IMG/VR virus record: IMGVR_UViG_3300042111_000083
Coordinates: 1-36,562 of that record
Reading direction: 5' to 3' (one strand)
DNA from: a virus
DNA: 36,562 bases
In this document: one piece after another, positions 9,395-36,562 of the stretch
How positions within the stretch are numbered: position 1 is the first letter of the stretch
How the letters are laid out: every line of letters starts with the position of its first letter
Position numbers and translations under genes: made by a program
The notes under the pieces: generated by a model
The model's input: the letters and a program-made list of their open reading frames with translations, nothing else
Database searches by the model: none
Told to the model about the DNA's origin: nothing

Positions 9395-9398
9395 AATT

Positions 9399-14153: not shown

Positions 14154-14714
14154 ATGAATAATGTTATGAAATATGTGATTACAGGGCATAGATCTGGTAT
14201 AGGTAAATCTATATTTGATTATTATGCGAAACAACCTAATATATATTGTACTGGTTATGATATATCTCACCATTTAGATTTAAACGATTCAAAAGTACAC
14301 TCAGATTTTATAGATAGTTGTAAAGATGCTTCAGTCATAGTACTGAATGCACACACAGGACAACAACATATTTCTTTGAATACTCTTTTTAATTTTTACA
14401 AATCAGAATCAAAACATGTAATTGTAATAGGATCACTTGTAAGTAAAGTGTGGAAAACTATTGAAGAAGTTCCTGAAACATTTAAAACTTATTGGTCACA
14501 GAAAAAATTACTCGAAGATTCTATTACAAGCTTGTATGATGTAAAGATTCCTCTCAAAATTAGTATTCTTCGTCTTGATTGGGTAGATACTCAACTTTCT
14601 AAAGAATATTCTGGTAAAAAATTAACAATCGAATCAGTTTTAAAAGCAGTAAGATACATCATAGAAAATAAAGATAGTTATATAACAAGTATGGATTTAC
14701 AATGTACGAATTAA
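14154..14714 (+). CDS. Short-chain dehydrogenase/reductase-like protein (186 aa)
   Basis: A Rossmann NAD(P)-binding start, GHRSGIGKSI (Gly11, Gly15, Gly17), with LNAHTG replacing the usual NAG-type motif. A serine sits in VIGSLVS (Ser94), and Tyr113-x-x-x-Lys117 (YWSQK) is the catalytic pair. It is shorter than the usual 250 residues, ending soon after the substrate loop. It could be a minimal SDR or a related reductase/epimerase. The aminotransferase starts 13 bases inside its 3' end, so the two probably act on the same metabolite (inference). ATG 14166 is an alternative start. Confidence 0.68.
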   Translation: MNNVMKYVITGHRSGIGKSIFDYYAKQPNIYCTGYDISHHLDLNDSKVHSDFIDSCKDASVIVLNAHTGQQHISLNTLFNFYKSESKHVIVIGSLVSKVWKTIEEVPETFKTYWSQKKLLEDSITSLYDVKIPLKISILRLDWVDTQLSKEYSGKKLTIESVLKAVRYIIENKDSYITSMDLQCTN

Positions 14715-15925
14715 GAAATAGTGCTGATGGTGAAATTCCTAAAATAGTCACAAATACTCATCGTTATTGGGTTGAAATGAATGATGGTAAAAAATACTTA
14801 GATATTCAATCTGGGAATAGTGCTTTCACACTTGGTTATGCTCATAGTGAAGTAATAAAGGCAATGGCTGATAAAATTACTTCAGTTGGTTTTATAAGAG
14901 GAAACACTGGTGAGAGTGATACAGATACTCAGGAGATGGTTAATTTTGTTTTATCTGAATCAAGAATGTCAGTTATGTCTTGGGCTATTTCTGGAACTTC
15001 AGCAGTAGAGTGTGCTATCATGATGAATGATAGTTATTGGAAACAAGTAAATCCAAAAAAACATTTAATTGTATCTTGTTCTCCAGGATATCACGGCACA
15101 AGTTATCTTACAAGAGCAATGGCTAGTCCATATACAGCTGATTTTCCATCAGATAGATTAAGATGTATTCGAGCACCTAAGTGGAACACAATAGAAGAAC
15201 GTGAAACAGAAGAAGAAAGAGCATTAGCAGAATTAGAAAAAAGATTTACTAAATTTGATGACTCGTCAAACGTTGGTGCTTTTATAATGGAAACTTGTCC
15301 TTGGATGGATGGAATACTTCCTTATAGTAAAAGATGGTGGGAGGGTGTTAGACATCTTTGTACACAATATAAAATAAATTTTATTACAGATGATGTAGCA
15401 GTTTGTTGGGGTAAATCATTATCATATTTTGGATATTCAACAGCAGGATATAATATTCAACCAGATATTATTGCTTGTGGTAAATCATTATCAGCAGGAT
15501 ATGCACCAATCGGATTCGCAGCAGGTAATGCTCGTATTGGTGAAATTCTTTCAACGCAAGAGTGGGGGTGGGGACACACTTGGCAACCTTATATGGCTGG
15601 TATTGGTGCAATGAAAAAAGTAAAAGAAATTATACAAAATAATGGTTTGTTTCATACAGCAAAAAGAACAGTTATACGTTTAGATGAAATTGCTAAAGAT
15701 TTACTCAATCAAGGGTATTTGAAAAGTTATAGACAACAAGGATTGTTTTTAGAATTAGATTGTAAAAACCCAACTGTTGGAGTAATGGGTAAGCTTGTTC
15801 GTTCAGGAATGCTCTCAACTACTCAACAAAACAATTCAATAAGAATTATAGCGAATTTAATCGCAGATGATGAATATTTTAACGAATTAAAGACTAGATT
15901 AAATGATTTTTTTAGTAAAAACTAA
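14702..15925 (+). CDS. Class III PLP-dependent aminotransferase (407 aa)
   Basis: Fold-type I features appear in order: SGTSAVECA (98-106, the SGxEAxExA phosphate loop); PGYHGTS with His131 stacking on PLP; FITDDV with Asp230 contacting the pyridine nitrogen; and CGKSLSAGYAPIG with the Schiff-base Lys261. The closest well-known relatives are glutamate-1-semialdehyde aminomutase and omega-aminotransferases. The start (MYELRNSADGEIPKIV) is like that of a second copy beginning at 36232. Such enzymes transfer an amino group to or from a small molecule or sugar-like carbonyl. Coupling with the SDR suggests a two-step conversion. The substrate is not determinable. Confidence 0.85.
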   Translation: MYELRNSADGEIPKIVTNTHRYWVEMNDGKKYLDIQSGNSAFTLGYAHSEVIKAMADKITSVGFIRGNTGESDTDTQEMVNFVLSESRMSVMSWAISGTSAVECAIMMNDSYWKQVNPKKHLIVSCSPGYHGTSYLTRAMASPYTADFPSDRLRCIRAPKWNTIEERETEEERALAELEKRFTKFDDSSNVGAFIMETCPWMDGILPYSKRWWEGVRHLCTQYKINFITDDVAVCWGKSLSYFGYSTAGYNIQPDIIACGKSLSAGYAPIGFAAGNARIGEILSTQEWGWGHTWQPYMAGIGAMKKVKEIIQNNGLFHTAKRTVIRLDEIAKDLLNQGYLKSYRQQGLFLELDCKNPTVGVMGKLVRSGMLSTTQQNNSIRIIANLIADDEYFNELKTRLNDFFSKN

Positions 15926-21242: not shown

Positions 21243-21784
21243 TACAAAAAGAAAAAATCAAATGGTACGATCGTTCATCTCATTTTAGGCATTTGAACCC
21301 AAATGAGTTAGAAGAATGTTTGATTAAATTAAAAAAATCTAGTTTAAAACAAACTGTTAAAGACGATATGCATATGTGTCTTGCAAATCTAAGAGATTTA
21401 GGTTCAGTTGGAAGTTTTAATCACGAGTTGAAAGAAAATTTCTTTGTTTATTGTGAACAAATCGGTATAGATGTTGAGAAATACAAAAGATCAGAAGAGA
21501 AACGAGTAATGACTTCTTCTTTTGCTAGTACAATATGGGATAAAATTGTTAAATTAATCAATGCTAATGAAGAAGACTCCTCTAAGAGAGTTAAAGGCAT
21601 AAAGAAATTAGTTCTTTTTCGTTTATTACAAAAAGAATTACCAGATGTTGAGAAAAAACATATTCATAAGACTGTAAAGAATAATATTAAATTGGGTGCT
21701 TTAGAATATCATCAACAATCAAAATCAAGTAAGTTAATTCGTAAAGGACAATATTGGAACACTTATGTTAAAGTCAATAAGTAA
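21230..21784 (+). CDS. Hypothetical protein with likely TTG start (184 aa)
   Basis: Not recognised. A helical, Lys-rich protein; the C-terminal half (IWDKIVKLINANEEDSSKRV, KHIHKTVKNNIKLGALEYHQ) looks like a winged-helix DNA-binding region ending in GQYWNTYVKV. No ATG occurs in the first 45 residues, so TTG 21230, inside the previous gene, is the likely start. The desaturase begins 20 bases inside its 3' end. Confidence 0.55.
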   Translation: MQKVIQKEKIKWYDRSSHFRHLNPNELEECLIKLKKSSLKQTVKDDMHMCLANLRDLGSVGSFNHELKENFFVYCEQIGIDVEKYKRSEEKRVMTSSFASTIWDKIVKLINANEEDSSKRVKGIKKLVLFRLLQKELPDVEKKHIHKTVKNNIKLGALEYHQQSKSSKLIRKGQYWNTYVKVNK

Positions 21785-22592
21785 TTTTAGTTGGGAAGAT
21801 TTTTCAACACGTAATAATTTATATTTTCGTGTTGCTTATTATATTTTTGTACATATATTAGCATTACTTGTATTTAAATATGGTACACTAACTACATTTT
21901 TTACATTTATATTATTTTGGTGGTTTGGTGCTTGGGCTGTATCAGGTTATACGCATAGAACATTATCGCATAAATCAATTGAAATAAAAAGTAAGTTTTT
22001 AGAACATTTAAGTAATATATTTGCAATCTATGCTGGAATAGGTACACCTTTGGGTTGGGCAGCATTACATCGTATGCATCATACTCATTTAGATACTGAA
22101 TTAGATCCACATAGTCCACATCGTATAGGATTCTGGCGATCTTATTTACATTTATGGGATTGGCGAAAAGAAGATGTACCATTAAAATATGCAGCAGGAT
22201 TATTTCGTAATCGCATTGCTGTTTATTATCACAATCGTGCTATACCTACTTTATTATTATTTTGGTTTGGATTATTCATTGTATCAGAATTTTTAAAAGT
22301 AAATTTAGGAATATTAGGTGGCTTAGAAGTTTGTATTGGTGCAGCATTAGCTGTAGTTGCAGGTTTGCATGGTATGGGTGTGACGAACGCAGTAAGTCAT
22401 AGTCACGAAATACCAAAAAAAGTTGTGTCACTTGATCCAATCGCAGGTGCATTCATTAATTGGGGCGAAGGAAATCATGAATATCATCACACAAAACCAA
22501 TGGATTATAGTTTTGGGAATGGTATATCAGATCCTGTCGCAAGAACTGCCGAATTATTTGAAAAGTTAAATTTAGTTCAAATTAATAGATGA
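21765..22592 (+). CDS. Membrane fatty-acid (acyl) desaturase (275 aa)
   Basis: The three histidine boxes of the di-iron membrane desaturases are in order: HRTLSH (64-69), HRMHH (102-106, with HLDTELDPHSP following) and HEYHH (238-242, in GEGNHEYHHTKP). These bind the two irons that insert a double bond in an acyl chain using O2. Four membrane spans flank them (about 21-40, 44-61, 161-180 and 186-205). At 275 residues it is short but complete for the acyl-CoA delta-9 type. It overlaps the previous gene by 20 bases and the next by an ATGA. A possible role is to alter host membrane fluidity or to act on a product of the ketosynthase at 25815 (inference). Confidence 0.88.
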   Translation: MLKSISNFSWEDFSTRNNLYFRVAYYIFVHILALLVFKYGTLTTFFTFILFWWFGAWAVSGYTHRTLSHKSIEIKSKFLEHLSNIFAIYAGIGTPLGWAALHRMHHTHLDTELDPHSPHRIGFWRSYLHLWDWRKEDVPLKYAAGLFRNRIAVYYHNRAIPTLLLFWFGLFIVSEFLKVNLGILGGLEVCIGAALAVVAGLHGMGVTNAVSHSHEIPKKVVSLDPIAGAFINWGEGNHEYHHTKPMDYSFGNGISDPVARTAELFEKLNLVQINR

Positions 22593-23749: not shown

Positions 23750-24445
23750 ATGTTATTTAACGATTCAGTAATTAATCATAAAGCACTAGACTATAAATTA
23801 TGTCCTCTTCCTTTAAATGCTGAAGGAATGAATTGGATGGATGAACAAACATTCCAAAAACAAACTAAATTATGGGTACCGATTAAATATCATAATCATG
23901 CATTTTTAAAATGGACTAAGATGATCGGCTTGAGTATTACAGATATAGAATTGTTTTATAATCCACCAAATCATTCAATGCCAGTTCATATTGATGGAAA
24001 TAATCTTCATGATGAATTTAAATTAAATTATGCTTTTAATCCAACTGGAAATAGTTTAATGAATTGGTTTAAACCAAAGTCAAATACAAAGGCAAAAACC
24101 GAAGGAGTAATGTATGAAAATCAATCTGAAAGAGATATTAACACAGCAGATTTATATTGGTATCCTGATGAAGTTGATTTAATTGAGAGCCACGATATTA
24201 AAGTTTCAATAGTTCAAGTTGGGCAACCACACAATGTTGCTACTACTCATTCATCTCGTAAATGTTTATCTTGCGTGTTTGATAAAATATTAAGTTCAGG
24301 ATACACCACAAATGATCAAATTATATTAAATGAAGAATTAAGTAAGATAGCATTTGATAGAGATAAAGCAGTTAAAAGTGGAATATTACAAGATGTTGTA
24401 CCAATGTGGGATGCTGTAAATTTATTTAAAAGGTTTATTATATGA
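23750..24445 (+). CDS. Putative 2OG-Fe(II) oxygenase-fold protein (231 aa), trio member 1
   Basis: HID (His80, Asp82 in NHSMPVHIDGN), His161 (VGQPHNVA) and Arg170 (SSRKCLSCVF) give the HxD...H...R pattern. Before the distal His is YWYPDEVDLIESHDIKVSIV, echoed in the next gene as WTPEECDLVHTSEIGFPSLV. Together these show a diverged trio of related proteins (23750, 24612, 25168). This subfamily has a GxPHN or GxPHS motif, unlike the other oxygenases here. The C-terminal 50 residues are an added helical tail. Enzyme activity is inferred from the pattern. Confidence 0.6.
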   Translation: MLFNDSVINHKALDYKLCPLPLNAEGMNWMDEQTFQKQTKLWVPIKYHNHAFLKWTKMIGLSITDIELFYNPPNHSMPVHIDGNNLHDEFKLNYAFNPTGNSLMNWFKPKSNTKAKTEGVMYENQSERDINTADLYWYPDEVDLIESHDIKVSIVQVGQPHNVATTHSSRKCLSCVFDKILSSGYTTNDQIILNEELSKIAFDRDKAVKSGILQDVVPMWDAVNLFKRFII

Positions 24446-24615
24446 GTAAAGAAACAATTATAGAAACTGCAGCAAATACAGTTTATTGTGATGGATATGA
24501 TCCTCTTTTAGAAGATGATACTCATCCAAGAGTATTTTACACATTAAAAGAATATAAAGATGGTGAAACAAAAGCTGTTTGTTTTTATTGTGGTACAATT
24601 TTTAAAAAAATATGA
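24442..24615 (+). CDS. Small CHCC zinc-finger protein (57 aa)
   Basis: ATG 24442 overlaps the previous stop (ATGA) and the frame ends at 24615, overlapping the next ATG. VYCDGYD, then THPRVFY, then AVCFYCG gives the Cys-His-Cys-x-x-Cys zinc-binding pattern of the zf-CHCC family (VxCDG...HPRVxL...CPYCG), found in bacterial small proteins and the NDUFS6 complex I subunit. In this context it may stabilise or regulate the neighbouring oxygenase-like proteins (inference). Confidence 0.75.
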   Translation: MSKETIIETAANTVYCDGYDPLLEDDTHPRVFYTLKEYKDGETKAVCFYCGTIFKKI

Positions 24616-25205
24616 AAAACATTTATTGCGCAAATTTAAAATTACCAGTAAATGATGTAATGATAGATAAAAATTGGTTAAGTAAAATGCCAGACAAAGG
24701 ACATTTTCCCATACCAGAAAAAGAAGTAAATCCTGAATTGTTAGATTTTTTTGAAGGAAAAGGAATGTATCTAAAAAATGCTGATGTGTTTTGTTCTCCT
24801 CCAGGATTTTATTTACAAATACACATTGATGGAACAGATTTAGGAACTAATTCATGTGCGATTAATTGGCAATATTGTACTGAAAAAGGTTCTTACATGC
24901 AATGGTGGAATCCAAAACCTGAATTTGCAAATAAAGATATTATAGAGCCAGAAAGTTTTAGTGAAAATAGTTATAAAATAGAAACAACACCATATGCTTA
25001 TGCTTGGACTCCTGAAGAATGTGATTTAGTTCATACTTCTGAAATAGGTTTTCCATCATTAGTAAATATAGGCGTGCCACACTCAATGAAAAATGATACA
25101 AAGGTTAATCGATATGCGATTAGTTTGACGTGGAGACGTTATAATGGTTCAACAGTAGAATGGGATTATGTATATGAGAAATTACAGTCATACGTTGTGG
25201 CGTGA
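24612..25205 (+). CDS. Putative 2OG-Fe(II) oxygenase-fold protein (197 aa), trio member 2
   Basis: HID (His71, Asp73 in FYLQIHIDGTD), His157 (VNIGVPHSMKN) and Arg167 (NRYAISLTW) are all kept. The middle part (CAINWQYCTEKGSYMQWWNP) matches the corresponding NYAFNPTGNSLMNWFKP of trio member 1, so the two are paralogues. It starts with an ATGA overlap on the zinc-finger gene and overlaps trio member 3 by 38 bases. Substrate unknown. Confidence 0.6.
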   Translation: MKNIYCANLKLPVNDVMIDKNWLSKMPDKGHFPIPEKEVNPELLDFFEGKGMYLKNADVFCSPPGFYLQIHIDGTDLGTNSCAINWQYCTEKGSYMQWWNPKPEFANKDIIEPESFSENSYKIETTPYAYAWTPEECDLVHTSEIGFPSLVNIGVPHSMKNDTKVNRYAISLTWRRYNGSTVEWDYVYEKLQSYVVA

Positions 25206-25794
25206 ATTAAATCTGCCAATATCACCAATTAAAAAGGATTATATATTCCCTAAAGAATCAGATCAAGATATAGCAGCAAAATACACAGACCATTATCATG
25301 AAAGACATTTAATCAATCAAGATTTAATTGATTGGGCTAAGTCTATAGATCTTGGTGTACTTCGTATTGAAAGATTTTCATCTAAACCAAATTATCGAAT
25401 GTATATTCACACTGACAACGATGATTGGATAGATGATTTAGTTAAAATTATTTGGTGTTATTGTCCCACAGACGATCATACGATGAATTGGTATGATATA
25501 AAAGATACTACTTACTACGAAACTGAAACAAATAACGATTCTGGACCTACAATGAGATTCCCAGATTTTAATATTGATAAATTAATTACAAGTACTACCA
25601 TTAAGAGTAATCCTATATTAGCAAATACTGGGAGACCACATAATATTCAGAATGGGAGTAGTTATAGACATGTAGTTTGTGCTTGGTTTCATGATTTAAA
25701 ATCAAATGAAAAAATTACAGTTGACGGAAATATTTACCCAAAACCACTTCAATGGAACGTTGCAGTTCAAAGAATGAATAACTTTATTTTATAA
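25168..25794 (+). CDS. Putative 2OG-Fe(II) oxygenase-fold protein (208 aa), trio member 3
   Basis: HTD (His81, Asp83 in NYRMYIHTDND), His158 (NTGRPHNIQN) and Arg167 (YRHVVCAWF) complete the pattern. IIWCYCPTDDHTMNWYDI aligns with the W-containing strand of the other two members. The start overlaps member 2; ATG 25168 and 25174 are equally possible. A TATAAATA element overlaps its stop, before the ketosynthase gene. Confidence 0.6.
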   Translation: MYMRNYSHTLWRELNLPISPIKKDYIFPKESDQDIAAKYTDHYHERHLINQDLIDWAKSIDLGVLRIERFSSKPNYRMYIHTDNDDWIDDLVKIIWCYCPTDDHTMNWYDIKDTTYYETETNNDSGPTMRFPDFNIDKLITSTTIKSNPILANTGRPHNIQNGSSYRHVVCAWFHDLKSNEKITVDGNIYPKPLQWNVAVQRMNNFIL

Positions 25795-25797
25795 ATA
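25790..25797 (+). promoter_or_regulatory. T4-late-like promoter element TATAAATA
   Basis: An exact match to the T4 late -10 element, overlapping the stop of trio member 3 and 17 bases before ATG 25815. A leader of about 10 bases would follow. It is the best late-promoter candidate in the window and would drive the metabolic cassette. Confidence 0.45.
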
Positions 25798-25814: not shown

Positions 25815-26996
25815 ATGAAACCAGTATATGTAGTTGGATATGGAATGATTGACAGCCTTGGAAATAATCCAAAAGATTGTTTCAATAAGATGTTAGATAA
25901 TCATGATTATTCTTCTGATTTACCTGAGTTGAAAGCTGAGAACGCAAAAGTTTTTCGTGGTGCTATATTCAATCCTAACGATTGCATTATACCAAAAGAT
26001 TTTGACATTAAAATGCTTCGTTCTTTAACGAACGCACAAAAGATGATGCTTCATTCAGTTGATGCAGCATTAAAAATGTCAAACCTACCCCACCATTATG
26101 ATGTTGCGACTCTTCTTTCAACAGTTTCAAACGATACTGAATTTTTAGATGAGTTGTATTTACTAACTAAAAATCATAAAAGAGTAAATCCTAGAAAATC
26201 AGCAAATCGTATTCCAGACATGGGATGTTCACATATTTCATCTCATTATAAATTTATGGGATTAAGTGCAGCAACATTCGCAAGTTGTTCTACTGGTCTT
26301 GTAACAATTGATTATGGAATGCGATTAGTTGATGAATATGAGTATGTAATTGTCGGAGGATCTGATGCAGGTTGTTTTCCGATGGCAATTAAATATTTTA
26401 ATACATTAGGTGCTGTAGGAAATTACAGTATGCCTTTTGATGATTCTCGTACAGGATTTTTAATGGGAGATGGTTGTGGTGTTTTAATATTACAATCAGA
26501 AGCGATGGTAAAAAAATACGGAAGTAAGATATTCGCTAAGTTATATCCTTGTGGTATGGCTAGTGATGCTTTAGATATGACAAGCCCAGCCAATGATGGC
26601 AGAGGTGCTCGTATAAGTATGTCTAAAGCAACAAAAGATATTGGAGAAGAAATAGATTTTGTATGTGCTCATGCTACATCAACACCTATTGGCGATCCGA
26701 TAGAATACGAAACTGTAGTCAGCTTTCTAGGTGATAAACCTATTTGGGCTCCGAAGTCTAAAATAGGACACACCTTAGGTGCTGCTGGAGTGTTAGAATG
26801 TATATATGCGATTCTTTCTATGCAAAAAGGAACGATTCCACATATACAAAATCTTAAAAGTGCGTCTTGCGATTCTAAAAATATTTTAGTTCGTGAGAAT
26901 TTAAATACTAACAAAAAAGTTTTGCGAACATTAAATAACTCATTCGGATTTGGGGGAAAATGTATGTCGCAAGTAATAGAGGTAAGTAAAACATGA
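25815..26996 (+). CDS. Beta-ketoacyl-ACP synthase-like enzyme (393 aa)
   Basis: A thiolase-fold condensing enzyme, similar to FabF/KAS II. Cys158 in FASCSTGLVTID is the nucleophile; His286 in CAHATSTPIGD and His319 in KSKIGHTLGAAG (with Lys314) complete the Cys-His-His triad. FMGDG-like LMGDGCGVLIL and NNSFGFGGKC near the end are also typical. Length is near the usual 410. It condenses an acyl chain with malonyl-ACP in fatty-acid or polyketide synthesis. No acyl carrier protein or ketoreductase partner of clear type is next to it, so it would rely on host ACP, or act in a nonstandard condensation. It is followed by an ATGA-coupled small gene and SpeD. Confidence 0.88.
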   Translation: MKPVYVVGYGMIDSLGNNPKDCFNKMLDNHDYSSDLPELKAENAKVFRGAIFNPNDCIIPKDFDIKMLRSLTNAQKMMLHSVDAALKMSNLPHHYDVATLLSTVSNDTEFLDELYLLTKNHKRVNPRKSANRIPDMGCSHISSHYKFMGLSAATFASCSTGLVTIDYGMRLVDEYEYVIVGGSDAGCFPMAIKYFNTLGAVGNYSMPFDDSRTGFLMGDGCGVLILQSEAMVKKYGSKIFAKLYPCGMASDALDMTSPANDGRGARISMSKATKDIGEEIDFVCAHATSTPIGDPIEYETVVSFLGDKPIWAPKSKIGHTLGAAGVLECIYAILSMQKGTIPHIQNLKSASCDSKNILVRENLNTNKKVLRTLNNSFGFGGKCMSQVIEVSKT

Positions 26997-27142
26997 AGAC
27001 AATAATTCTATTAGCAATCGGTATCATAATCGGTTGGTCTTATAAGCCAGCATTCGCTGACAATGTAATAAACAAATCTAAAGAAATCTTAACAGGTGCA
27101 TTAAACTATGTAAAAGCTCTTTTTAAAAAGGAGAATAAGTAG
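26993..27142 (+). CDS. Small protein with N-terminal membrane or signal segment (49 aa)
   Basis: An ATGA overlap with the ketosynthase; frame ends at 27142. KTIILLAIGIIIGWSYKPAF followed by ADN reads as a signal peptide with a possible cleavage after AFA, or a membrane anchor. A helical tail follows (EILTGALNYVKALFKKENK). Function unknown. GGAG near its end can serve as the ribosome binding site of speD. Confidence 0.6.
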   Translation: MKTIILLAIGIIIGWSYKPAFADNVINKSKEILTGALNYVKALFKKENK

Positions 27143-27144
27143 AG

Positions 27145-27558
27145 ATGCAACTAGAAACAATTACGAAAACGGAATTGACAAATTCCAAGGAGATTCCCCA
27201 ACGTCAAACATCTTGGGGATATCATTTAATTATTGATGCAAAAGGATGCACTAAAAACTTTCAAGACCCAGTAGTTTTGAAAACTTTTTTAAATGATCTT
27301 TTAGTTCGCATTGATATGAATGCATGGGGTGAGCCATGGATAACTCATTTTGCTGAAAAGCCAGAAATAGCTGGATGGACAGTAATACAAGCATTGACTA
27401 CAAGTTCATTAACAATACACTTTTTAGATAATAGTGGTGATTGTTATTTTGATTTGTTTTCATGCAAAACTTTTGATATTGAAATGGTGAAAACTATGAT
27501 AAAAGAATATTTTGATCCTATTTCAATGAAGGATCAATATCTTGTTAGACAAGCATAA
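27145..27558 (+). CDS. speD: S-adenosylmethionine decarboxylase proenzyme-like (137 aa)
   Basis: Bacterial AdoMet decarboxylases self-cleave to make a pyruvoyl group and supply the aminopropyl donor for spermidine. GYHLIIDAKGC (25-35), then AGWTVIQALTTSSLTIHF and DCYFDLFSCKTFD follow the family order. Ser87 is the expected pyruvoyl serine, with His92 five residues and Cys107 twenty residues later, the same spacing as Ser63, His68 and Cys83 in the T. maritima enzyme. The Glu before the serine is Thr86 here. The enzyme could be active, slow to process, or a pseudoenzyme. SpeD is a known auxiliary gene of marine phages. Confidence 0.78.
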   Translation: MQLETITKTELTNSKEIPQRQTSWGYHLIIDAKGCTKNFQDPVVLKTFLNDLLVRIDMNAWGEPWITHFAEKPEIAGWTVIQALTTSSLTIHFLDNSGDCYFDLFSCKTFDIEMVKTMIKEYFDPISMKDQYLVRQA

Positions 27559-28027
27559 TATAACACCAAAAGAAGCATTACAAGAGTGGTTGGCGAGACT
27601 TAAAATACCTCGCCAAGCACTTGATGGCCATTCTATATGTCCATTTAGTAAAGGAATCAGTGTACCTACACCTGAAGACTTAAACATCGATAAATCTTTT
27701 CGTCCTCCTTTATTATGGGAGATTAAAAAAATTAAAATTTACAACATAACTAATCCAAATATTACAACAACTGAATTAGATGAATGGTGCGATTATTTTA
27801 TAAACAAATATGAAAATTATATGTTTATAGCAGACCATAAAGACAGAGATACGTACATTAATGGAATTAAAACAAATAATGGCTATTTTAACTTTATGTT
27901 AGTTCAAAGTTTGCCTGAATTAAATGAAGCACGTAGAAATTTATTAAAAACAACCAACTATTATAGTTTTTGGGATCCTGAATATTTAAAAGATACTTGG
28001 AATAATAGCTTTGATAAAGAAGAATAA
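27542..28027 (+). CDS. Hypothetical protein with ICPF motif, TTG start (161 aa)
   Basis: AAGGA (27529-27533) lies eight bases before TTG 27542, and no ATG occurs in the first 90 residues, so TTG is the likely start. GHSICPFSKGISVPTPED (about residues 29-46) has a CPF motif; I do not know the family with certainty. The rest is alpha/beta (RPPLLWEIKKIKIYNI, ELDEWCDYFINKY, FNFMLVQSLPELNEARRNLL). It lies between speD and the amidinotransferase and overlaps speD by 17 bases, so it probably works with them. Confidence 0.6.
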   Translation: MLDKHNITPKEALQEWLARLKIPRQALDGHSICPFSKGISVPTPEDLNIDKSFRPPLLWEIKKIKIYNITNPNITTTELDEWCDYFINKYENYMFIADHKDRDTYINGIKTNNGYFNFMLVQSLPELNEARRNLLKTTNYYSFWDPEYLKDTWNNSFDKEE

Positions 28028-28029
28028 TT

Positions 28030-29112
28030 ATGAGTGTTTGGACAGATTATGATCCTTTAAAAGAAATTATTATTGGTGTTATACCAAAGCCTGAATATTT
28101 TTCAAATTTTTTAAAACCAGATATACTAGAAGTTCTTACTCCAATTATAAAAGAAACAGAAGAAGATTTAGAGAAATTCTCAAATATATGCACTTCGTTA
28201 GGAGTGAAAGTATATAGACCAAAAGTAATAGATTTTAGAGAACCATTAAAACTTCCTGGATTTAAAATTAAGAATCCAATAGCACCATTAGTTCCAAGAG
28301 ACAGTTATCTAGTATATGGGAACACAATTTATTCTTCCTATACAAGTATGGCTGATAGATGGTTAGAGTCATTATCATTCTATGATATTTTTATGGAAAA
28401 ATATAAAGAAGGATACAACTGGATATCAACGCCAGTTCCACAGTTAAAAGATTTTAGACCTGATACTCAATGGTACACTCATGGTGGAGATCGCTATGGT
28501 GTTGACTTAGTAGATAAAATATTATGGCATTGTGCTACAATGTATAAATGCGGTGATGCATTAATAGTAAATTCTTCTGGTCCAGGAACTAAATTGGGTT
28601 ATGAGTGGATGCAACGTAATATGCCTAATGCTAGATTTATAAAAAATGCAAATAAACCACATCGTGGATGGGGACACATAGATCAATTTTTCTTTCAAAC
28701 AGATGATACTACAGTATTTTGTACGAATAAAAACTATGTTCCAGATATATTCCTAAATAATAGTAAGTTCAAAATACATGAATTTGGTCATCTAATTAAA
28801 GATGTAGATATGAAACAATATGAACATCGTCTAGCACAAACAGATGGTAAGTATAGTATTGAATGGATTGATGAATGGATTGATGAGTGGAGAGGTTTTG
28901 CACAAGAAGTAGCATTTGATAGTAATGTAGTTGTAGTTGATAATAAAAATATAATTGTCACTAATGAACAACCAGCATTATCAAATTATTTTAAAGAATT
29001 TGGAATAACATTACATTCTGTTAATTTAAGACAAGGTGGTTTTTGGGATGGTGGTGTTCATTGTTTGTCACTTGATATTAAAAGAGATGGAGAGAAAAGA
29101 AAAATTGTATGA
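28030..29112 (+). CDS. Glycine amidinotransferase-like enzyme (360 aa)
   Basis: Members of the guanidino-modifying superfamily form a Cys-amidino intermediate from arginine. Catalytic Cys345 lies in GGVHCLSLDIKRDG, close to GGFHCWTCDVRRRG of vertebrate GATM, and His216 in GHIDQFF matches the GATM HID histidine. LGYEWMQRNMP, PRDSYLVYGNTIY and the C-terminal strand order also fit. By eye, the Asp of the GATM DAAD motif has no clear match (WHCATMYKCGD here). The acceptor could be glycine, another amine or a polyamine. A 12-base repeat adds EWIDEWIDEW. It is ATGA-coupled to the first Asp_Arg_Hydrox-like gene. Confidence 0.82.
   Translation: MSVWTDYDPLKEIIIGVIPKPEYFSNFLKPDILEVLTPIIKETEEDLEKFSNICTSLGVKVYRPKVIDFREPLKLPGFKIKNPIAPLVPRDSYLVYGNTIYSSYTSMADRWLESLSFYDIFMEKYKEGYNWISTPVPQLKDFRPDTQWYTHGGDRYGVDLVDKILWHCATMYKCGDALIVNSSGPGTKLGYEWMQRNMPNARFIKNANKPHRGWGHIDQFFFQTDDTTVFCTNKNYVPDIFLNNSKFKIHEFGHLIKDVDMKQYEHRLAQTDGKYSIEWIDEWIDEWRGFAQEVAFDSNVVVVDNKNIIVTNEQPALSNYFKEFGITLHSVNLRQGGFWDGGVHCLSLDIKRDGEKRKIV
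28861..28890 (+). repeat. In-frame 12-base tandem repeat in the amidinotransferase gene
   Basis: GAATGGATTGAT is repeated exactly, followed by GAGTGG, giving EWID-EWID-EW in the protein at about residues 278-287. Its exactness suggests a recent slippage duplication. Confidence 0.85.
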
Positions 29113-30107
29113 GAAAAATTTATAACTGGATAAATCCAACATATTACATTGATTATGAGAAATTAAAGGATGAAATAGTTCCTTTGATGCAAGAAGATTT
29201 ACGTGAATGGATGGAAAATCATCCAATAGAAACAAGCACCGAATGTGCTTATGCTCCACCAGAAGAAGTAGAAGAAAAGATTCTTAACAAAAAAGAAGAG
29301 TTAAAGGCACATAAAAATCGTGCGATTGCTTATAAAGAAATTCTTACAGACGAAAATGAAAGAAAACATTATAATGATTGGCGATCAATTGATTTTCTTT
29401 ATGAACGCAAATGGAATAAAGAAGTATTTAAAAGATCTTGGCAATTAATGTCTGAATGTAAAGGTATTAAACAAATCTTTATTAATTTTATAAAACCAAA
29501 TGGAATTATAACACCACACTTAGATACTTCTACTTGGGAAAAGATAGAAGAAGATTGGAATTTGCCACTCTATTCATTAGAGGGTGCGAGTATTATTGCT
29601 ACACTCTTTACAGGTATGAATGATAGAAAATCAAAAACTGTTGGAATGAAAGTAAATGGAATTTATAAATTTCCATTAGCTGGAGAATTAGTTTGTTTTG
29701 ATGGAAGATGGAACGAACATCAGATGTGGAATAATACAGACCAATGGAGAATTACAGCAGTTATAGACATTGATAGACAATACTTTACTCAAGTATTAGA
29801 AGATGTTAATGAAGAAATTATAGAAGTACAAAAACCAAAAGATCAAATTTATATAGAATCAAATGTGGTACTTAAAATGCAAAATTCTTTTAGTAAAGAT
29901 GAAGTAGAATATTATTTAAATCATGGTTTATCTGAAAAAATAGAATTTTTAAAACAAAAAATACTTTGGTTGACAGAATATTCTGGACGTAAAATATACG
30001 CAGACCATTTAGATGAAGCTTCAACAACAATATTTTTAACTTCTAATTTAGCAAAAATAGATATGTATTTTAAAAAATATAGAGATTATTATGTTCATAG
30101 CACCTAA
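29109..30107 (+). CDS. Asp/Asn beta-hydroxylase-like 2OG oxygenase (332 aa), array copy 1
   Basis: HLD (His137, Asp139 in GIITPHLDTSTW), His204 and Arg214 (NEHQMWNNTDQWRITAVIDI) fit the Asp_Arg_Hydrox (PF05118) type, in which GExxxFD..x..HxxxNxxxxxRIxxxxDI is the C-terminal signature. Such enzymes hydroxylate Asp/Asn or related residues in proteins or free amino-acid units. All six copies share YxxDYxxL-like starts, HYNDWRS-type segments and INFIKPNG before the HxD. This copy alone has about 100 extra C-terminal residues of unknown fold. It overlaps the amidinotransferase by ATGA. Confidence 0.75.
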   Translation: MRKIYNWINPTYYIDYEKLKDEIVPLMQEDLREWMENHPIETSTECAYAPPEEVEEKILNKKEELKAHKNRAIAYKEILTDENERKHYNDWRSIDFLYERKWNKEVFKRSWQLMSECKGIKQIFINFIKPNGIITPHLDTSTWEKIEEDWNLPLYSLEGASIIATLFTGMNDRKSKTVGMKVNGIYKFPLAGELVCFDGRWNEHQMWNNTDQWRITAVIDIDRQYFTQVLEDVNEEIIEVQKPKDQIYIESNVVLKMQNSFSKDEVEYYLNHGLSEKIEFLKQKILWLTEYSGRKIYADHLDEASTTIFLTSNLAKIDMYFKKYRDYYVHST

Positions 30108-30786
30108 TTCTTATATTGATTATCCTGTATTATTAGATCATTATCAATCATTAGTAGATGATATGAATGAATGGCTTAAAACGCATACACCAGAAAAAGA
30201 TTCAATTGGTGTATATGCTGATGACGAACCTGTAAATAAGTTTTTATCCACTACTACTAATTTCGTAGAAACTTGGACGACGCACGAAGAATATGAACAT
30301 CGTAATGATTGGAAATCCATACCTGTATTTTTTGAAAAAGTATGGAATGAAAAAGATTTTCCTAAATTTTCAGAACATGGTAAAAAATTAAAAGGTTTAA
30401 GACAAATAATTATCAATTTTGTTGCTCCATATGGTAAAATTACATTACATACTGATGTTGATAACTGGGCTAAAATGTCACAAGATTGGGAATGTAAATG
30501 CGAAGGATACTCATTAATTGCCACTTTGAAATCAGGTATGAAAAAATCTAAAGAACAAACAGTAGGAACGAGTATAAGAAATGCTAAAACAGGAAATGAT
30601 ACATGGGCTTATCCTCTTGAAAATGAATTTGTTTGTTTTGATGGTTTGAATTATAATCACTCAATAATAAACAATACAAAAGAATGGAGAATTACTGCTG
30701 TGTTTGATATTGATAAAGAAAAATTTAATCCTATGTATATTAAAACAGATAAACAGGTTTGTGAAGATTTTAAATATGTGGATTGA
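30091..30786 (+). CDS. Asp/Asn beta-hydroxylase-like 2OG oxygenase (231 aa), array copy 2
   Basis: HTD (His120, Asp122 in KITLHTDVDNW), His190 (NHSIINNT) and Arg200 (EWRITAVFDID). The segment YEHRNDWKSIPVFFEKVWN matches copies 1 and 3 closely, as does SLIATLKSGMKKSKEQTVGT. It starts 17 bases inside copy 1 and overlaps copy 3 by 11 bases. Copies 1 to 3 are nearer each other than copies 4 to 6. Confidence 0.75.
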   Translation: MFIAPNSYIDYPVLLDHYQSLVDDMNEWLKTHTPEKDSIGVYADDEPVNKFLSTTTNFVETWTTHEEYEHRNDWKSIPVFFEKVWNEKDFPKFSEHGKKLKGLRQIIINFVAPYGKITLHTDVDNWAKMSQDWECKCEGYSLIATLKSGMKKSKEQTVGTSIRNAKTGNDTWAYPLENEFVCFDGLNYNHSIINNTKEWRITAVFDIDKEKFNPMYIKTDKQVCEDFKYVD

Positions 30787-31438
30787 TGAAAAAAAATATA
30801 GAGATTATAAAACATTAATCTCTATCATTCCTGAGTTAGCAAATGATTTGTCAATTTGGCTAACACACAATAATCCAGAAGTTGATACAGATCCAGTGTA
30901 TGAAGATAGAGTATCAAGTCAAAATTCTTATGCTTATATTACTCCTACAGGAATTCAGTTTGCTAATCCAGAAATGACTGAACCTGCACCAGATCCTATT
31001 CGAGATCCTGAAGGATATAAACATAGAAAAGACTGGAGATGTCTCGGAGCATTTTACGAAAAAAAATGGAACACAAAATTATTACCAGAGTCATATAAAA
31101 GTTTAGGGAGATTAATTGGTTTAGTTCAATTAAATATAAATTTTTTATGTCCATATGGTAAAATAACAAATCACAAAGATGATGGTGGTTGGCACAAAAT
31201 AAGTTTAGATTGGGGTACTAAAATTGAAGGATATAGCATAGTCTCAACACTTCATACAGGTATGAAAGATGCTAAAGAAGAAACAGTAGGAATGTGTGTA
31301 AATGGAATAAATAAATTTCCATTACAAAATGAATTAGTTTGCTTTGATGGTATTAATAGTGTTCATAGTATGTGGAATAATACACCAGAGTGGAGAATCA
31401 CTGCTGTATTTGATATAAGAAAAGAAGCATTTATATGA
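30776..31438 (+). CDS. Asp/Asn beta-hydroxylase-like 2OG oxygenase (220 aa), array copy 3
   Basis: HKD (His133, Asp135 in KITNHKDDGGW), His197 and Arg207 (VHSMWNNTPEWRITAVFDI). ATG 30776 is chosen over a longer reading from 30704, because MWIDEKKYRDYKTL matches the start of copy 5 (MWIDATKYKHYEIL). An extra Pro-rich loop (about residues 56-80) sits before the KDWRCLGAFYEKKWN segment. It ends with an ATGA overlap to copy 4. Confidence 0.75.
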   Translation: MWIDEKKYRDYKTLISIIPELANDLSIWLTHNNPEVDTDPVYEDRVSSQNSYAYITPTGIQFANPEMTEPAPDPIRDPEGYKHRKDWRCLGAFYEKKWNTKLLPESYKSLGRLIGLVQLNINFLCPYGKITNHKDDGGWHKISLDWGTKIEGYSIVSTLHTGMKDAKEETVGMCVNGINKFPLQNELVCFDGINSVHSMWNNTPEWRITAVFDIRKEAFI

Positions 31439-32133
31439 TAATTGAAACAAGAACATTTAAGTGGTATAATCAATTAATTGAATTACAAGAATTAATCAAA
31501 CAAGATTTTAGTAATTGGTTATTAAAATATAAGTTTGAAGATAGAGTTCAAGTACAAAAATTTGAAAATCCTGAAGTATATCCTGAATATTCAAATATCA
31601 CAGGAGATATGGATGACTATCATAGACCTGAAAACATAGAAGATAAAGAAGAGGGTAAATCAAAAGAGTATTGGTTTTGTGATCCTATACTTACAAATAA
31701 AGGAAATATTAAATGTAAGTATTATGAAGATTGGAAAATCTCAGCAGATTTTGCTGCTAAAATTCCTGGATTAGTTCAATACATTGTAAATTTTGTAAAA
31801 CCAAATTCTCGACTTCCAATGCATGATGATAGTGGTGGGTGGAAAAGACAAGAAAAAGATTTAGGAATTAAACTAAATGGATTTACAAATGTATTCGGAC
31901 TACAAGCAAATGGAAATAATTCTTATTTTGAATTTGGTAAAACTAATTCTAAACATCCATTAAATACTGGAGAGTGGATAACATTTGAAGGCAAAACACA
32001 CGAACACAATGTGGTGAATAATAGTAGCATATGGCGTGTCACTGCAGTTGTAGATTTTTTAGAATCTGAGTATAATCTATCAATACCAGAAACTAAATAT
32101 TTAAACCATAGATGGAACAACTATAATTATTAA
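31435..32133 (+). CDS. Asp/Asn beta-hydroxylase-like 2OG oxygenase (232 aa), array copy 4
   Basis: HDD (His130, Asp132 in RLPMHDDSGGW), His191 (HEHNVVNNSS) and Arg201 (WRVTAVVDF). VQYIVNFVKPNSRLPMHDD links it to copies 5 and 6 (LPMHHD, LPVHHD). The region between residues 48 and 98 is an acidic insertion not seen in the others. One base separates it from copy 5. Confidence 0.73.
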   Translation: MIIETRTFKWYNQLIELQELIKQDFSNWLLKYKFEDRVQVQKFENPEVYPEYSNITGDMDDYHRPENIEDKEEGKSKEYWFCDPILTNKGNIKCKYYEDWKISADFAAKIPGLVQYIVNFVKPNSRLPMHDDSGGWKRQEKDLGIKLNGFTNVFGLQANGNNSYFEFGKTNSKHPLNTGEWITFEGKTHEHNVVNNSSIWRVTAVVDFLESEYNLSIPETKYLNHRWNNYNY

Positions 32134-32134
32134 T

Positions 32135-32734
32135 ATGTGGATAGACGCAACAAAATATAAGCATTACGAAATTCTTAAAACAAGTTTAATTCCTGCATTA
32201 GAATTAGACTATGATAGATTCATTCGTAAATTTAAAATAACTGAAACAGGTGTAAATGTATTTCGATTTGAATATCCTAATCGAGAAGACGAACATGCTG
32301 ATGATTGGTGGGCTATACCACTTATTCAAGGAGGGGAAGCAGTACCACCTTTAAGAAATCCATGGCAACATTCAACAGCAAGTTTAAAAGAAATTCCTGG
32401 AGTGTTTCAATCAATCGTAAATTTTATAAAACCAAATGGTGGATTGCCAATGCATCATGATTTTGGTAGTTGGCAAAGAATAGAAGAAGCATTTGGTCAT
32501 CCAGTAAAAGGATATACAATAGCAATTGGTATTGATATGCCATCAAACGATCCGAATGTTTGTGGTATGGAATTTGAAAATGATACTTATCCAAGAACTT
32601 ATGGAAATAAAGAAATAGTAGCATTTAATGGACGTGATTTTATGCATAAAGTATGGAATAAAACAGGAAATTGGCGTGTTTCTTGTGTAATTGATACAGA
32701 TATAAAGCATTGGAATGACTTTACAAACAATTAA
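32135..32734 (+). CDS. Asp/Asn beta-hydroxylase-like 2OG oxygenase (199 aa), array copy 5
   Basis: HHD (His107, Asp109 in GGLPMHHDFGSW), His171 (FMHKVWNKTG) and Arg181 (NWRVSCVID). It is the shortest copy and has no extra domains. YTIAIGIDMPSNDP aligns with FTVSFGIDIPEPEK of copy 6, so these two are closest. Its 3' end contains the -35 box of a promoter for copy 6. Confidence 0.74.
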   Translation: MWIDATKYKHYEILKTSLIPALELDYDRFIRKFKITETGVNVFRFEYPNREDEHADDWWAIPLIQGGEAVPPLRNPWQHSTASLKEIPGVFQSIVNFIKPNGGLPMHHDFGSWQRIEEAFGHPVKGYTIAIGIDMPSNDPNVCGMEFENDTYPRTYGNKEIVAFNGRDFMHKVWNKTGNWRVSCVIDTDIKHWNDFTNN

Positions 32735-32748
32735 AAATATAGTATAAT
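32720..32748 (+). promoter_or_regulatory. Consensus-like sigma-70 promoter inside the oxygenase array
   Basis: TTTACA (32720-32725), a 17-base spacer and TATAAT (32743-32748) in ATATAGTATAATATAG, nearly the same as at 3652 and 15929. The -35 box overlaps the end of copy 5. ATG 32757 of copy 6 lies 8 bases past the -10 box. Confidence 0.8.
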
Positions 32749-32756
32749 ATAGTCTT

Positions 32757-33368
32757 ATGTGGCTTGGAAATCCTACATCTTATTCAAATTATAATGCTTT
32801 GACTGCTATGATGATTGCTCTCATGAGTGATTATACTGAATGGCGAAGTCAAAGATCATTCGAAGATACAATAAATGCTGACGATCGTTATTCTATGCCT
32901 GCAAATAATAGAGGTGGATTTAAAGCATTACCACTTATTGATGCTCGTAAAATAAACGAACAGTTAGAAGACAGATATCTTTGGAAACGCACTACTACTC
33001 AATTCTATAATATTCCTGGAGCAATCGACTTATGTGTCAATATGATACGTCCAGGAAAAATGCTACCAGTACATCATGATGGTTATGTTTGGGATTGGAT
33101 ACGTCAAAGTATGGGTGATCCTACACTTGAAGGATTTACTGTAAGTTTTGGTATCGATATACCTGAGCCAGAAAAACAAGCATTAATATTTGATGGTGAA
33201 AAGAAAATTTGGAAAACAGGTGAGTTTGTAGCATTTAATGGGCATGATATTCAACACAGTTTAAAGAATGAAGCAATTAATCCAGAACATTGGAGAGTGA
33301 CTGCTGTAATGGAAGTTGATAAAAAATATTTTAATTTAGAAACTGATGATGCAGGACAGCCATTATGA
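32757..33368 (+). CDS. Asp/Asn beta-hydroxylase-like 2OG oxygenase (203 aa), array copy 6
   Basis: HHD (His106, Asp108 in MLPVHHDGYVW), His167 (HDIQHSLKN) and Arg180 (HWRVTAVMEVD). MWLGNPTSYSNYNAL matches the start of copies 3 and 5. It is the only copy with its own strong promoter, which leaves a leader of only about one or two bases. It ends with an ATGA overlap to a small gene. Confidence 0.74.
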   Translation: MWLGNPTSYSNYNALTAMMIALMSDYTEWRSQRSFEDTINADDRYSMPANNRGGFKALPLIDARKINEQLEDRYLWKRTTTQFYNIPGAIDLCVNMIRPGKMLPVHHDGYVWDWIRQSMGDPTLEGFTVSFGIDIPEPEKQALIFDGEKKIWKTGEFVAFNGHDIQHSLKNEAINPEHWRVTAVMEVDKKYFNLETDDAGQPL

Positions 33369-36231: not shown

Positions 36232-36562
36232 ATGTACGAATTAAAAGAAATAAGCCCAGCAGAAAATCTTAAGAGAGTTATTCGAACTGATGGATATTGG
36301 GTTCATTACGAGAATCGTATTAACTTAGAAATACAATCTGGTAATTGTTCATTTACATTAGGTTATAATCATAAAGAATTAAAGAGTCTATTACCAACGA
36401 ATGATATAGATTTTCTTCGTGGCAATAGTGGTGAGTCCGCAGAGCCTGTTGATCGTTTAAGTGAAACACTGACGAAAGAAGCTGATATGGAGGGTATTGC
36501 CTATGCTGTATCTGGTTCTGATGCGAATGAGTGTGCTTTTTATATTAATGATTTATATTGGA
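36232..36562 (+). CDS. Class III aminotransferase, second copy (N-terminal 110 aa; cut by window end)
   Basis: Starts MYELKEISPAENLKRVIRTD and runs open to the window end. NRINLEIQSGNCSFTLGYNH, then FLRGNSGES, then YAVSGSDANECAFYI and DLYW match residues 32-113 of the 14702 aminotransferase one by one (KKYLDIQSGNSAFTLGYAHS, FIRGNTGES, WAISGTSAVECAIMM, DSYW). The two are diverged paralogues. Catalytic lysine lies outside the window. The second copy lacks an SDR upstream; a small gene precedes it. Confidence 0.8.
   Translation, partial: MYELKEISPAENLKRVIRTDGYWVHYENRINLEIQSGNCSFTLGYNHKELKSLLPTNDIDFLRGNSGESAEPVDRLSETLTKEADMEGIAYAVSGSDANECAFYINDLYW

What the first reader, a model, noticed from the sequence alone, without database searches (positions are those of the whole stretch)
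25815..33368. Phage-borne biosynthetic cassette: ketosynthase, AdoMet decarboxylase, CPF protein, amidinotransferase, then oxygenases
Genes for C-C condensation, decarboxylated AdoMet (aminopropyl donor) and amidino transfer lie in one block with short gaps and a TATAAATA element in front, then run into six oxygenase-like genes. The chemistry suggests a guanidino- or polyamine-containing, hydroxylated small molecule, or a modified polyamine. The class III aminotransferases, SDR, FkbM methyltransferase and desaturase elsewhere could feed the same pathway. The product is unknown and the grouping into one pathway is an inference.
Basis: partly seen in the sequence, partly recalled or inferred. 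Interest (0 to 1): 0.9.

Follow-up and report, generated by a model that had tools for sequence, protein, structure and literature searches.

The report
Phage gene set making guanidino compounds
A phage of the T4 type carries two neighbouring sets of enzyme genes, one probably for altering fatty acids and one that probably builds a guanidine-containing compound from arginine; the central enzyme of the second set has relatives in hundreds of viral sequences, and two limited searches of bacterial genomes for it or its partner found none.

Summary
The genes are real, conserved and under purifying selection, but look like two modules, not one cassette. (1) The ketosynthase (KS) belongs to a phage FabF-like family (112 viral stretches); only 3 of 33 sequence groups carry the amidinotransferase-like gene (AGAT) within 10 kb. 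Relatives place KS with a desaturase, oxygenases and, in some, ACP, AcpS and FabI: acyl-chain metabolism. (2) SpeD-like, CPF, AGAT and oxygenases form a separate module. In 56 AGAT loci outside one distinct clade, CPF lies within 8 kb in 53, a class III aminotransferase in 40, an SDR in 26, KS in 3; the window has the SDR and aminotransferase 12 kb upstream of AGAT. The partnership is one-sided: 16 of 22 distant CPF loci lack AGAT. The 'AdoMet decarboxylase' has the residues of pyruvoyl-dependent ornithine decarboxylases and lacks the proline of true AdoMet decarboxylases, so an aminopropyl donor is unlikely; ornithine is the by-product of arginine amidino transfer. Most likely function: making a guanidino compound, tailored by 2-oxoglutarate oxygenases. 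Product and acceptor are unknown, and AGAT has His where characterised relatives have Asp (71 of 71). Pattern-limited scans of about 85,000 genomes found no AGAT or CPF relative; 591 viral stretches encode AGAT relatives.

The parts
14154..14714 (+). SDR-like protein; same family as SDRs near CPF-AGAT in other phages; overlaps the next gene
   Evidence: HMM of those SDRs scores it E 1.1e-21 in a search of 4 window proteins; no Pfam family of its own beyond a chance hit and no NCBIfam family
14702..15925 (+). class III (PLP) aminotransferase AT3
   Evidence: PF00202 E 4.6e-48; relatives within 8 kb of AGAT in 40 of 71 loci
21765..22592 (+). membrane fatty-acid-desaturase-like protein (three histidine boxes read from the sequence)
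   Evidence: no Pfam hit at E 0.01; homologues within 10 kb of KS in 12 of 33 KS groups
23750..24445 (+). 2OG-oxygenase-like, type B
   Evidence: HxD...H...R; no Pfam family
24612..25205 (+). 2OG-oxygenase-like, type B
   Evidence: HxD...H...R; type B homologues near KS in 5 of 33 groups
25168..25794 (+). 2OG-oxygenase-like, type B
   Evidence: HxD...H...R; no Pfam family
25790..25797 (+). TATAAATA; no support as a promoter
   Evidence: 3 in window against 11.3 expected; kept in close relatives only
25815..26996 (+). FabF-like beta-ketoacyl synthase, active-site C158, H286, H319, K314 present
26993..27142 (+). 49-aa hydrophobic-start peptide between KS and speD
   Evidence: similar peptide in L002, L010, L013, L014; absent in L012, L026
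27145..27558 (+). SpeD-fold pyruvoyl decarboxylase with ornithine-decarboxylase (SpeDC) residues Q82, T86, F93, Y101; S87, H92, C107 kept
   Evidence: PMC10407285 section 7
27542..28027 (+). CPF protein (CPF[SA]K motif), usual partner of AGAT; no fold match
28030..29112 (+). amidinotransferase-like pentein (AGAT); C345, H216, D218, D91 kept; His167 at the Asp254 position of human AGAT
29109..30107 (+). Asp/Asn-hydroxylase-like 2OG oxygenase (type A), 332 aa
   Evidence: PF05118 27.5 bits, over cut-off
30091..30786 (+). type A oxygenase
   Evidence: PF05118 below cut-off; motif
30704..31438 (+). type A oxygenase, fast-evolving; listed start may be too early
   Evidence: PF05118 below cut-off; 59% and 48% identity to best matches in L010 and L013
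31435..32133 (+). type A oxygenase, missing in some relatives
   Evidence: PF05118 below cut-off; no own match in L004 and L007-L010
32135..32734 (+). type A oxygenase
   Evidence: PF05118 29.6 bits, over cut-off
32757..33368 (+). type A oxygenase
   Evidence: PF05118 below cut-off; motif
36232..36562 (+). start of a second class III aminotransferase, cut by the end of the window
   Evidence: reading frame open to the end; 32-35% relative of AT3 at the same place in relatives

Best explanation
Two neighbouring modules of a T4-like phage. Module 1 (SpeDC 27145, CPF 27542, AGAT 28030, type A oxygenases; SDR and AT3 at 14.2-15.9 kb) makes a guanidino compound: SDR oxidises an alcohol to a carbonyl, AT3 turns it into an amine, AGAT moves the amidino group of arginine onto an amine and frees ornithine, and the pyruvoyl decarboxylase turns ornithine into putrescine, which pulls the transfer forward and may supply an acceptor. 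CPF is a partner of AGAT with an unknown task. The oxygenases hydroxylate the product or its carrier. Module 2 (type B oxygenases, KS, probably the desaturase) acts on acyl-ACP chains. Shown: gene content, conservation, partnerships, kept or altered catalytic residues. Inferred: every reaction, the direction SDR to AT3 to AGAT, and the product.
For: In the 56 AGAT loci outside the FolE/QueD clade, CPF lies within 8 kb in 53, AT3 in 40, SDR in 26, SpeD in 25, KS in 3; CPF abuts AGAT (within 100 nt) in 45 of 71 and AT3 (within 120 nt) in 29 of 71. In 5 of 5 KS records with AGAT, AT3 is present, against 2 of 14 without. The window's SDR matches the SDR family of these loci. Of 21 distinct SpeD segments from loci that hold AGAT, 15 have the full ODC residue set and 1 has Phe for Tyr; none has the HTWP proline. 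The phage homologues of this kind assayed in print act on ornithine, or on arginine in a pelagiphage (PMC9992855). Best fold match of AGAT is the polyamine amidinotransferase HsvA, then SxtG, human AGAT, StrB1. KS context without AGAT; ACP, AcpS, FabI and acyl-ACP desaturase in relatives.
Against: AGAT has His167 in 71 of 71 where human AGAT, StrB1, HsvA and SxtG align an Asp, so arginine as donor is not assured. CPF is found without AGAT in 16 of 22 distant CPF loci and in 25 cyanophage records (two neighbourhoods read). In the window SDR and AT3 lie 12 kb from AGAT; its AT3 is 20-30% identical to copies abutting AGAT and 33-36% to copies 5-7 kb away. Of the 21 SpeD segments, 5 are not of ODC type, and one of these (L166) has lost the pyruvoyl Ser, His and Cys. 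9 of 46 AGAT groups have no CPF within 6 kb (8 groups hold FolE). SpeD is not within 8 kb of AGAT in 30 of 46 groups. KS and speD are packed without a gap in the window's clade, so co-transcription of both modules is likely.
Confidence: 0.5

Rival explanations
1. Polyamine route: the module only reshapes the polyamine pool. The ODC makes putrescine and AGAT amidinates putrescine or another polyamine (agmatine-like products), for DNA packing or translation.
For: Best fold match of AGAT is HsvA, titled a polyamine amidinotransferase; the SpeD-like protein has ODC residues; phage polyamine enzymes are established (PMC9992855).
Against: Does not explain SDR, AT3, radical SAM genes and many oxygenases as frequent partners. 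SpeD is not within 8 kb of AGAT in 30 of 46 groups.
Confidence: 0.2
2. One pathway: KS builds a chain that AGAT amidinates and the oxygenases hydroxylate.
For: KS lies directly upstream of speD in 15 of 28 loci, packed with a small ORF or with no gap; amidinotransferase plus polyketide logic exists in natural products (recalled).
Against: AGAT is within 10 kb in 3 of 33 KS groups, KS within 6 kb in 3 of 46 AGAT groups; they are apart in L112. I recognised no acyltransferase or dehydratase gene in the window by reading; the only reductase-like gene is the SDR.
Confidence: 0.1
3. Unrelated auxiliary genes gathered in a variable region, each acting alone on host metabolism.
For: The region varies in gene content between relatives; KS, CPF and SpeD occur apart.
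Against: CPF within 8 kb of AGAT in 53 of 56 loci and AT3 abutting AGAT in 29 of 71.
Confidence: 0.15
4. Modification of phage DNA or virion: putrescine or guanidine groups are attached to bases, capsid or tail.
For: A distinct AGAT clade (15 loci, support 1.0) sits near GTP cyclohydrolase I and PTPS/QueD-like genes, early steps of 7-deazaguanine synthesis; an ACP domain sits in a protein among genes I read as capsid-assembly genes in three relatives.
Against: No thymidylate-synthase-type enzyme (PF00303) in 16 records; no DNA-modification gene recognised in the window by reading.
Confidence: 0.15

Closest known systems
Phage pyruvoyl-dependent ODC/ADC derived from SpeD (SpeDC/SpeDA; PMC9992855 passages, PMC10407285 passages and section 7)
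   Same: same family, Ser/His/Cys catalytic set and the four residues Gln, Thr, Phe, Tyr in order; a Lake Baikal and a freshwater Myoviridae example were assayed there
   Different: in the passages seen they are treated as single genes; here the gene is packed with CPF and AGAT
Radical SAM plus amidinotransferase block of Campylobacter phages CP220 and CPt10 (PMC2853527, passages)
   Same: phage-borne amidinotransferase-like gene in an exchangeable block with radical SAM genes
   Different: 27% identity; Asp at the His167 position and Asn at the His216 position; the gene upstream is not a CPF relative; no aminotransferase annotated in the stretch shown
HsvA, SxtG, human AGAT, StrB1 amidinotransferases
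   Same: pentein fold, catalytic Cys and His-x-Asp
   Different: 20-23% identity in the Foldseek alignments; Asp254 equivalent replaced by His
Streptidine (aminocyclitol) synthesis logic: dehydrogenase, aminotransferase, amidinotransferase (recalled)
   Same: same order of enzyme types as SDR, AT3, AGAT
   Different: aminotransferase class and scaffold differ or are unknown; no sugar or cyclitol gene shown
Phage fatty-acid genes: prophage fabG-acpP-fabF (PMC8224337, passages) and cyanophage lipid desaturases (cited there)
   Same: FabF-type KS, ACP and desaturase carried by phages
   Different: KS here is a divergent phage family below the FabF equivalog cut-off (213.5 of 493.75 bits)

Membership tests
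Arginine amidinotransferases (AGAT/StrB1/HsvA) | pentein fold | tested here: met
   the seven best Foldseek hits are amidinotransferases, E 2.7e-22 to 5.5e-20, followed by arginine deiminases and DDAH; model pLDDT 79.5
Arginine amidinotransferases (AGAT/StrB1/HsvA) | catalytic Cys407, His303, Asp305 and Asp170 (human numbering, recalled) | tested here: met
   C345, H216, D218, D91 in 71 of 71
Arginine amidinotransferases (AGAT/StrB1/HsvA) | Asp254 (human numbering, recalled) | tested here: not met
   His167 in 71 of 71, against Asp in the 4 solved chains aligned; so I call it amidinotransferase-like, not a member
Arginine amidinotransferases (AGAT/StrB1/HsvA) | moves the amidino group from arginine | not testable with these tools
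   needs an enzyme assay
AdoMet decarboxylase (SpeD class 1b) | pyruvoyl Ser, His, Cys | tested here: met
   S87, H92, C107 invariant in 6 of 6
AdoMet decarboxylase (SpeD class 1b) | conserved Pro of true AdoMet decarboxylases | tested here: not met
   HFLD in place of HTWP; TIGR03330 27.8 of 75.65 bits. The place of the Pro is inferred from the canonical-looking rows L101, L116, L124
SpeDC ornithine decarboxylase | diagnostic Gln, Thr, Phe, Tyr | tested here: met
   Q82, T86, F93, Y101; residues and order from PMC10407285 section 7, exact columns inferred because the figure is not held
SpeDC ornithine decarboxylase | decarboxylates ornithine | not testable with these tools
   needs an assay
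FabF/FabB ketosynthase | KS domains and Cys-His-His(-Lys) | tested here: met
   PF00109, PF02801 over cut-off; C158, H286, H319, K314 invariant in 10 of 10
FabF/FabB ketosynthase | equivalog cut-off TIGR03150 | tested here: not met
   213.5 of 493.75 bits: a divergent KS
Asp/Asn beta-hydroxylase family PF05118 | profile over cut-off | tested here: inconclusive
   2 of 6 over 22.6 bits

The most novel reading that the evidence does not exclude
A widespread biosynthetic pathway known so far only from phages (SDR, class III aminotransferase, CPF, His-type AGAT-like enzyme, ornithine decarboxylase, 2OG oxygenases, often radical SAM enzymes) makes a guanidino compound of its own that the phage uses on itself or against the host's defences, with CPF as a new partner of a new amidinotransferase type.
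Probability: 0.33. Interest if true: 0.88.

Novelty: new variant of a known kind. Interest (0 to 1): 0.68.

Why it matters
Phage metabolic genes are usually read one by one as boosters of host pathways. If it makes a guanidino compound, that would be a phage-made metabolite with an unknown job, open to test with a handful of small enzymes. The work also corrects an annotation: the 'AdoMet decarboxylase' here is probably an ornithine decarboxylase, so aminopropyl chemistry should not be inferred from it.

Tried and rejected
Rejected: decarboxylated AdoMet as donor (residues; no spermidine synthase over cut-off in 24 records, one weak match below it). TATAAATA as a promoter. Sigma-70-like sites (79 found, 80.6 expected) and terminators (4 found, 3.8 expected) say nothing. 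CP220 gp085 as a CPF relative: no similarity. CPF fold: best PDB match E 0.34; DUF6875 was the best family hint, 3 of 19 members, best E 0.0019. A solved relative of the SpeD-like protein: 0 chains at E 1, so its residues were placed with rows. Thymidylate-synthase-type DNA modification: 0 of 16 records. Rfam: only the tRNA. Phage records with KS hits (28 records, all under 60% identity, those listed at 24-35%) look to me like host-type FabF/FabB and were not used. A weak OlsC (acyl hydroxylase) hit of 29109, 17.5 of 450 bits, was not built on.

Rows dropped or double: of the 80 AGAT loci, 12 loci closely related to the window (L030-L038, L041-L043) were left out; 4 (L039, L040, L071, L073) were represented by L010, L012, L026, L112 of the same contigs; L090, L091, L093 were added. 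So 71 loci were analysed, with L090 and L217 from one contig. Of 112 KS relatives 80 were kept by the tool. Many contigs end near the gene, so absence within 6-10 kb may be a contig end. Groups are single linkage at 85% identity.

Names given by reading, without a scan: uvsX, gp41, capsid-assembly genes, desaturase histidine boxes, PKHD, PhyH, the halogenase-like ORF. For radical SAM, FolE, QueD, FabI and the SDR and AT3 of other phages one member each was scanned (two radical SAM types). Human AGAT residue numbers and the streptidine and polyketide comparisons are recalled. Habitats of the viral contigs were not looked up.

Papers: PMC10407285 (passages and section 7); PMC9992855, PMC11360552, PMC2853527, PMC8226683, PMC10653327, PMC8224337 (passages found by terms); PMC7029224 (terms searched, none found). 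All other papers were seen as search listings only. In these searches of the held library I found no description of a CPF-AGAT pair or of an SDR-AT3-AGAT phage module; other literature was not searched.

Full report
WHAT IS THERE. The window is a 36.6 kb viral record. RNase H with the T4-type C-terminal domain (PF09293), both ribonucleotide reductase subunits and a primase, and two long related records that share many genes in order, mark a T4-like phage. All genes of the finding lie on the plus strand. KS, speD-like, CPF and AGAT are packed: a 49-aa ORF (26993-27142) fills the gap between KS and speD, and the other junctions overlap or are 2 nt apart. The six downstream oxygenases and the three upstream ones carry HxD...H...R (32135 read by eye). 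Against L010 dN/dS is 0.09 for KS, 0.09 for speD, 0.15 for CPF, 0.09 for AGAT and 0.05 for nrdB as a yardstick; oxygenase 30704 diverges faster (0.54) and 31435 is missing in several relatives. So the genes are real and maintained.

TWO MODULES. A scan with KS found 28 loci. In 15 (L002-L015, L026) KS, speD, CPF and AGAT keep their order as far as each contig reaches; in the other 13 (L016-L025, L027-L029) KS stands without speD, CPF and AGAT. A profile scan gave 112 relatives, 80 kept, in 33 groups. Within 10 kb, AGAT occurs in 3 groups (16 of 80 loci); in L112 it lies 7.3 kb from KS, with speD and CPF next to it. A desaturase-like gene occurs in 12 groups and type B oxygenases in 5; 7 groups have KS near genes I read as uvsX or gp41. 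KS therefore does not depend on the AGAT set. Contig ends limit these counts.

WHAT KS DOES. It is FabF-like with its active-site residues but far below the FabF equivalog cut-off. In a sister clade (L016 and kin) the neighbourhood holds an enoyl-ACP-reductase-like SDR (7 of 80 loci; one scanned: PF13561, E 2.4e-71) and AcpS (6 of 16 records; 0 of 39 further records), and three long records hold an ACP domain inside a protein of about 326 aa beside genes I read as capsid-assembly genes. L122 has a separate ACP and an acyl-ACP desaturase (PF03405) around KS; its record is the only one of the 39 further ones with an ACP. This fits work on acyl-ACP chains. In the window's own clade no ACP or AcpS was found (8 records, the longest G001 with 144.8 kb), so host ACP would be needed (inference).

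WHAT THE 'AdoMet DECARBOXYLASE' IS. Ser, His and Cys of the pyruvoyl enzyme are kept. PMC10407285 (section 7) states that Gln, Thr, Phe and Tyr mark ornithine decarboxylases (SpeDC) and that a Pro marks true AdoMet decarboxylases. The window has Q82, T86, F93, Y101 and no Pro. Of 28 distinct SpeD segments, 21 come from loci that hold AGAT (distance about 1 to 10 kb): 15 have all four residues, 1 has Phe for Tyr, 4 are of other types without the Pro, and 1 (L166) has lost Ser, His and Cys. None of the 21 has the HTWP of L101, L116 and L124, which lack AGAT. Exact columns are my inference, since the figure is not held. PMC9992855 assayed phage homologues as ornithine decarboxylases, and one from a pelagiphage as an arginine decarboxylase; it also reports a true AdoMet decarboxylase from a Sinorhizobium phage inside the ODC clade, so the family alone does not settle the activity. 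No spermidine synthase passed the cut-off in 24 records.

THE AGAT MODULE. In 71 loci read (46 groups), CPF is within 6 kb in 37 groups, AT3 in 23, oxyA in 18, oxyB in 16, SpeD in 12, KS in 3. A tree separates a clade of 15 (support 1.0), of which 14 have GTP cyclohydrolase I and 14 a PTPS/QueD-like gene within 8 kb and none CPF, AT3 or SpeD. In the other 56 loci, which include the window's kin, CPF is within 8 kb in 53, AT3 in 40, SDR in 26, SpeD in 25 and KS in 3. Two of the three without CPF (L168, L204) begin at the AGAT gene, so the upstream side is missing. CPF abuts AGAT in 45 of 71 and AT3 does in 29 of 71. The reverse does not hold: of 22 distant CPF loci (L090-L111) 6 have AGAT and 16 do not, and CPF stands in 25 cyanophage records, upstream of gp25 in the two I read. 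As a contrast for AT3, it is within 10 kb in 1 of 30 KS groups without AGAT, though these groups differ in more than AGAT. Among 19 KS records, 5 of 5 with AGAT have AT3 and 2 of 14 without (Fisher p 0.002); four of the five are close kin, one exception (G020) ends 4.3 kb after KS, before the place where AGAT lies in G017, and the other (G052) is a weak match. The window's SDR matches the SDR family of these loci (E 1.1e-21), and a second class III aminotransferase begins at 36232 and runs off the window. Pattern-limited scans of 84,980 species genomes with AGAT and CPF found no relative; the AGAT patterns are specific to the His type, so canonical amidinotransferases would not show.

HOW IT PROBABLY WORKS. 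AGAT has the fold of amidinotransferases, with HsvA, SxtG, human AGAT and StrB1 as best matches. These move the amidino group of arginine to an amine and free ornithine (established knowledge). An ornithine decarboxylase next door removes that by-product. SDR and AT3 could make the acceptor amine in the order dehydrogenase, aminotransferase, amidinotransferase, as in streptidine synthesis (recalled). The oxygenases would tailor the product. CPF has a confident model (pLDDT 87) without a known fold match. The main caution is His167, in 71 of 71, where human AGAT, StrB1, HsvA and SxtG have Asp: donor or reaction may differ. My odds: two modules 0.85; SpeD-like is an ornithine decarboxylase 0.8; AGAT transfers an amidino group 0.6; SDR-AT3-AGAT order 0.4.

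KNOWN AND NEW. Phage ornithine decarboxylases (PMC9992855), prophage FabF and ACP (PMC8224337), fabF in a viral gene catalogue (PMC10653327), an annotated glycine amidinotransferase in viruses of a karst lake (PMC8226683) and the radical SAM/amidinotransferase block of CP220 and CPt10 (PMC2853527) are in print. PMC11360552 reports enrichment of a creatine-pathway methyltransferase, not of this enzyme. I found no report of the CPF-AGAT pair or of the SDR-AT3-AGAT set in the searches.

Noticed in passing
L051:967-1947, L050:979-1944, L052 (G002, G005, G003): A PP-binding (ACP) domain with a DSL serine lies inside an acidic protein of about 326 aa beside genes that read as capsid-assembly genes, in T4-like relatives that also carry AcpS and KS; the window-clade record G001 has no such domain. 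A possible acyl-carrying virion or scaffold protein.
   Followed up: partly
L122:5666-12801: Separate ACP, four 2OG-oxygenase-like genes, a FkbM-like gene, KS, acyl-ACP desaturase (PF03405) and a PhyH-like gene in a row: a second phage acyl module.
   Followed up: partly
L195, L197, L199, L201, L202, L208-L213, L218, L220, L223, L226: Distinct AGAT clade near GTP cyclohydrolase I and PTPS/QueD-like genes, mostly with a B12 radical SAM: possible link to 7-deazaguanine DNA modification.
   Followed up: partly
e.g. L190:10998-12908, L173:14056-15216: B12-binding radical SAM (32 of 71 loci) and a radical SAM with HMPTM zinc ribbon (22 of 71) within 8 kb of AGAT (one member of each scanned).
   Followed up: partly
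L099:13221-14831: ORF that reads like a tryptophan halogenase close to AT3 and AGAT (by eye only).
   Followed up: no
window 26993-27142: 49-aa peptide with a hydrophobic start between KS and speD, similar in four relatives.
   Followed up: partly
window 5674-6231, 8696-9394, 9396-10085: Three more ORFs that read like 2OG oxygenases; one has a weak PF13640 hit, two have no Pfam hit.
   Followed up: no
L102, L103, L105, L106; cyanophage records: CPF without AGAT; in two cyanophages it lies just upstream of the gp25 baseplate gene: CPF may have a role apart from AGAT.
   Followed up: partly
L166:2250-2606: SpeD-like gene in an AGAT locus that has lost the pyruvoyl Ser, His and Cys, so probably not a decarboxylase.
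   Followed up: no
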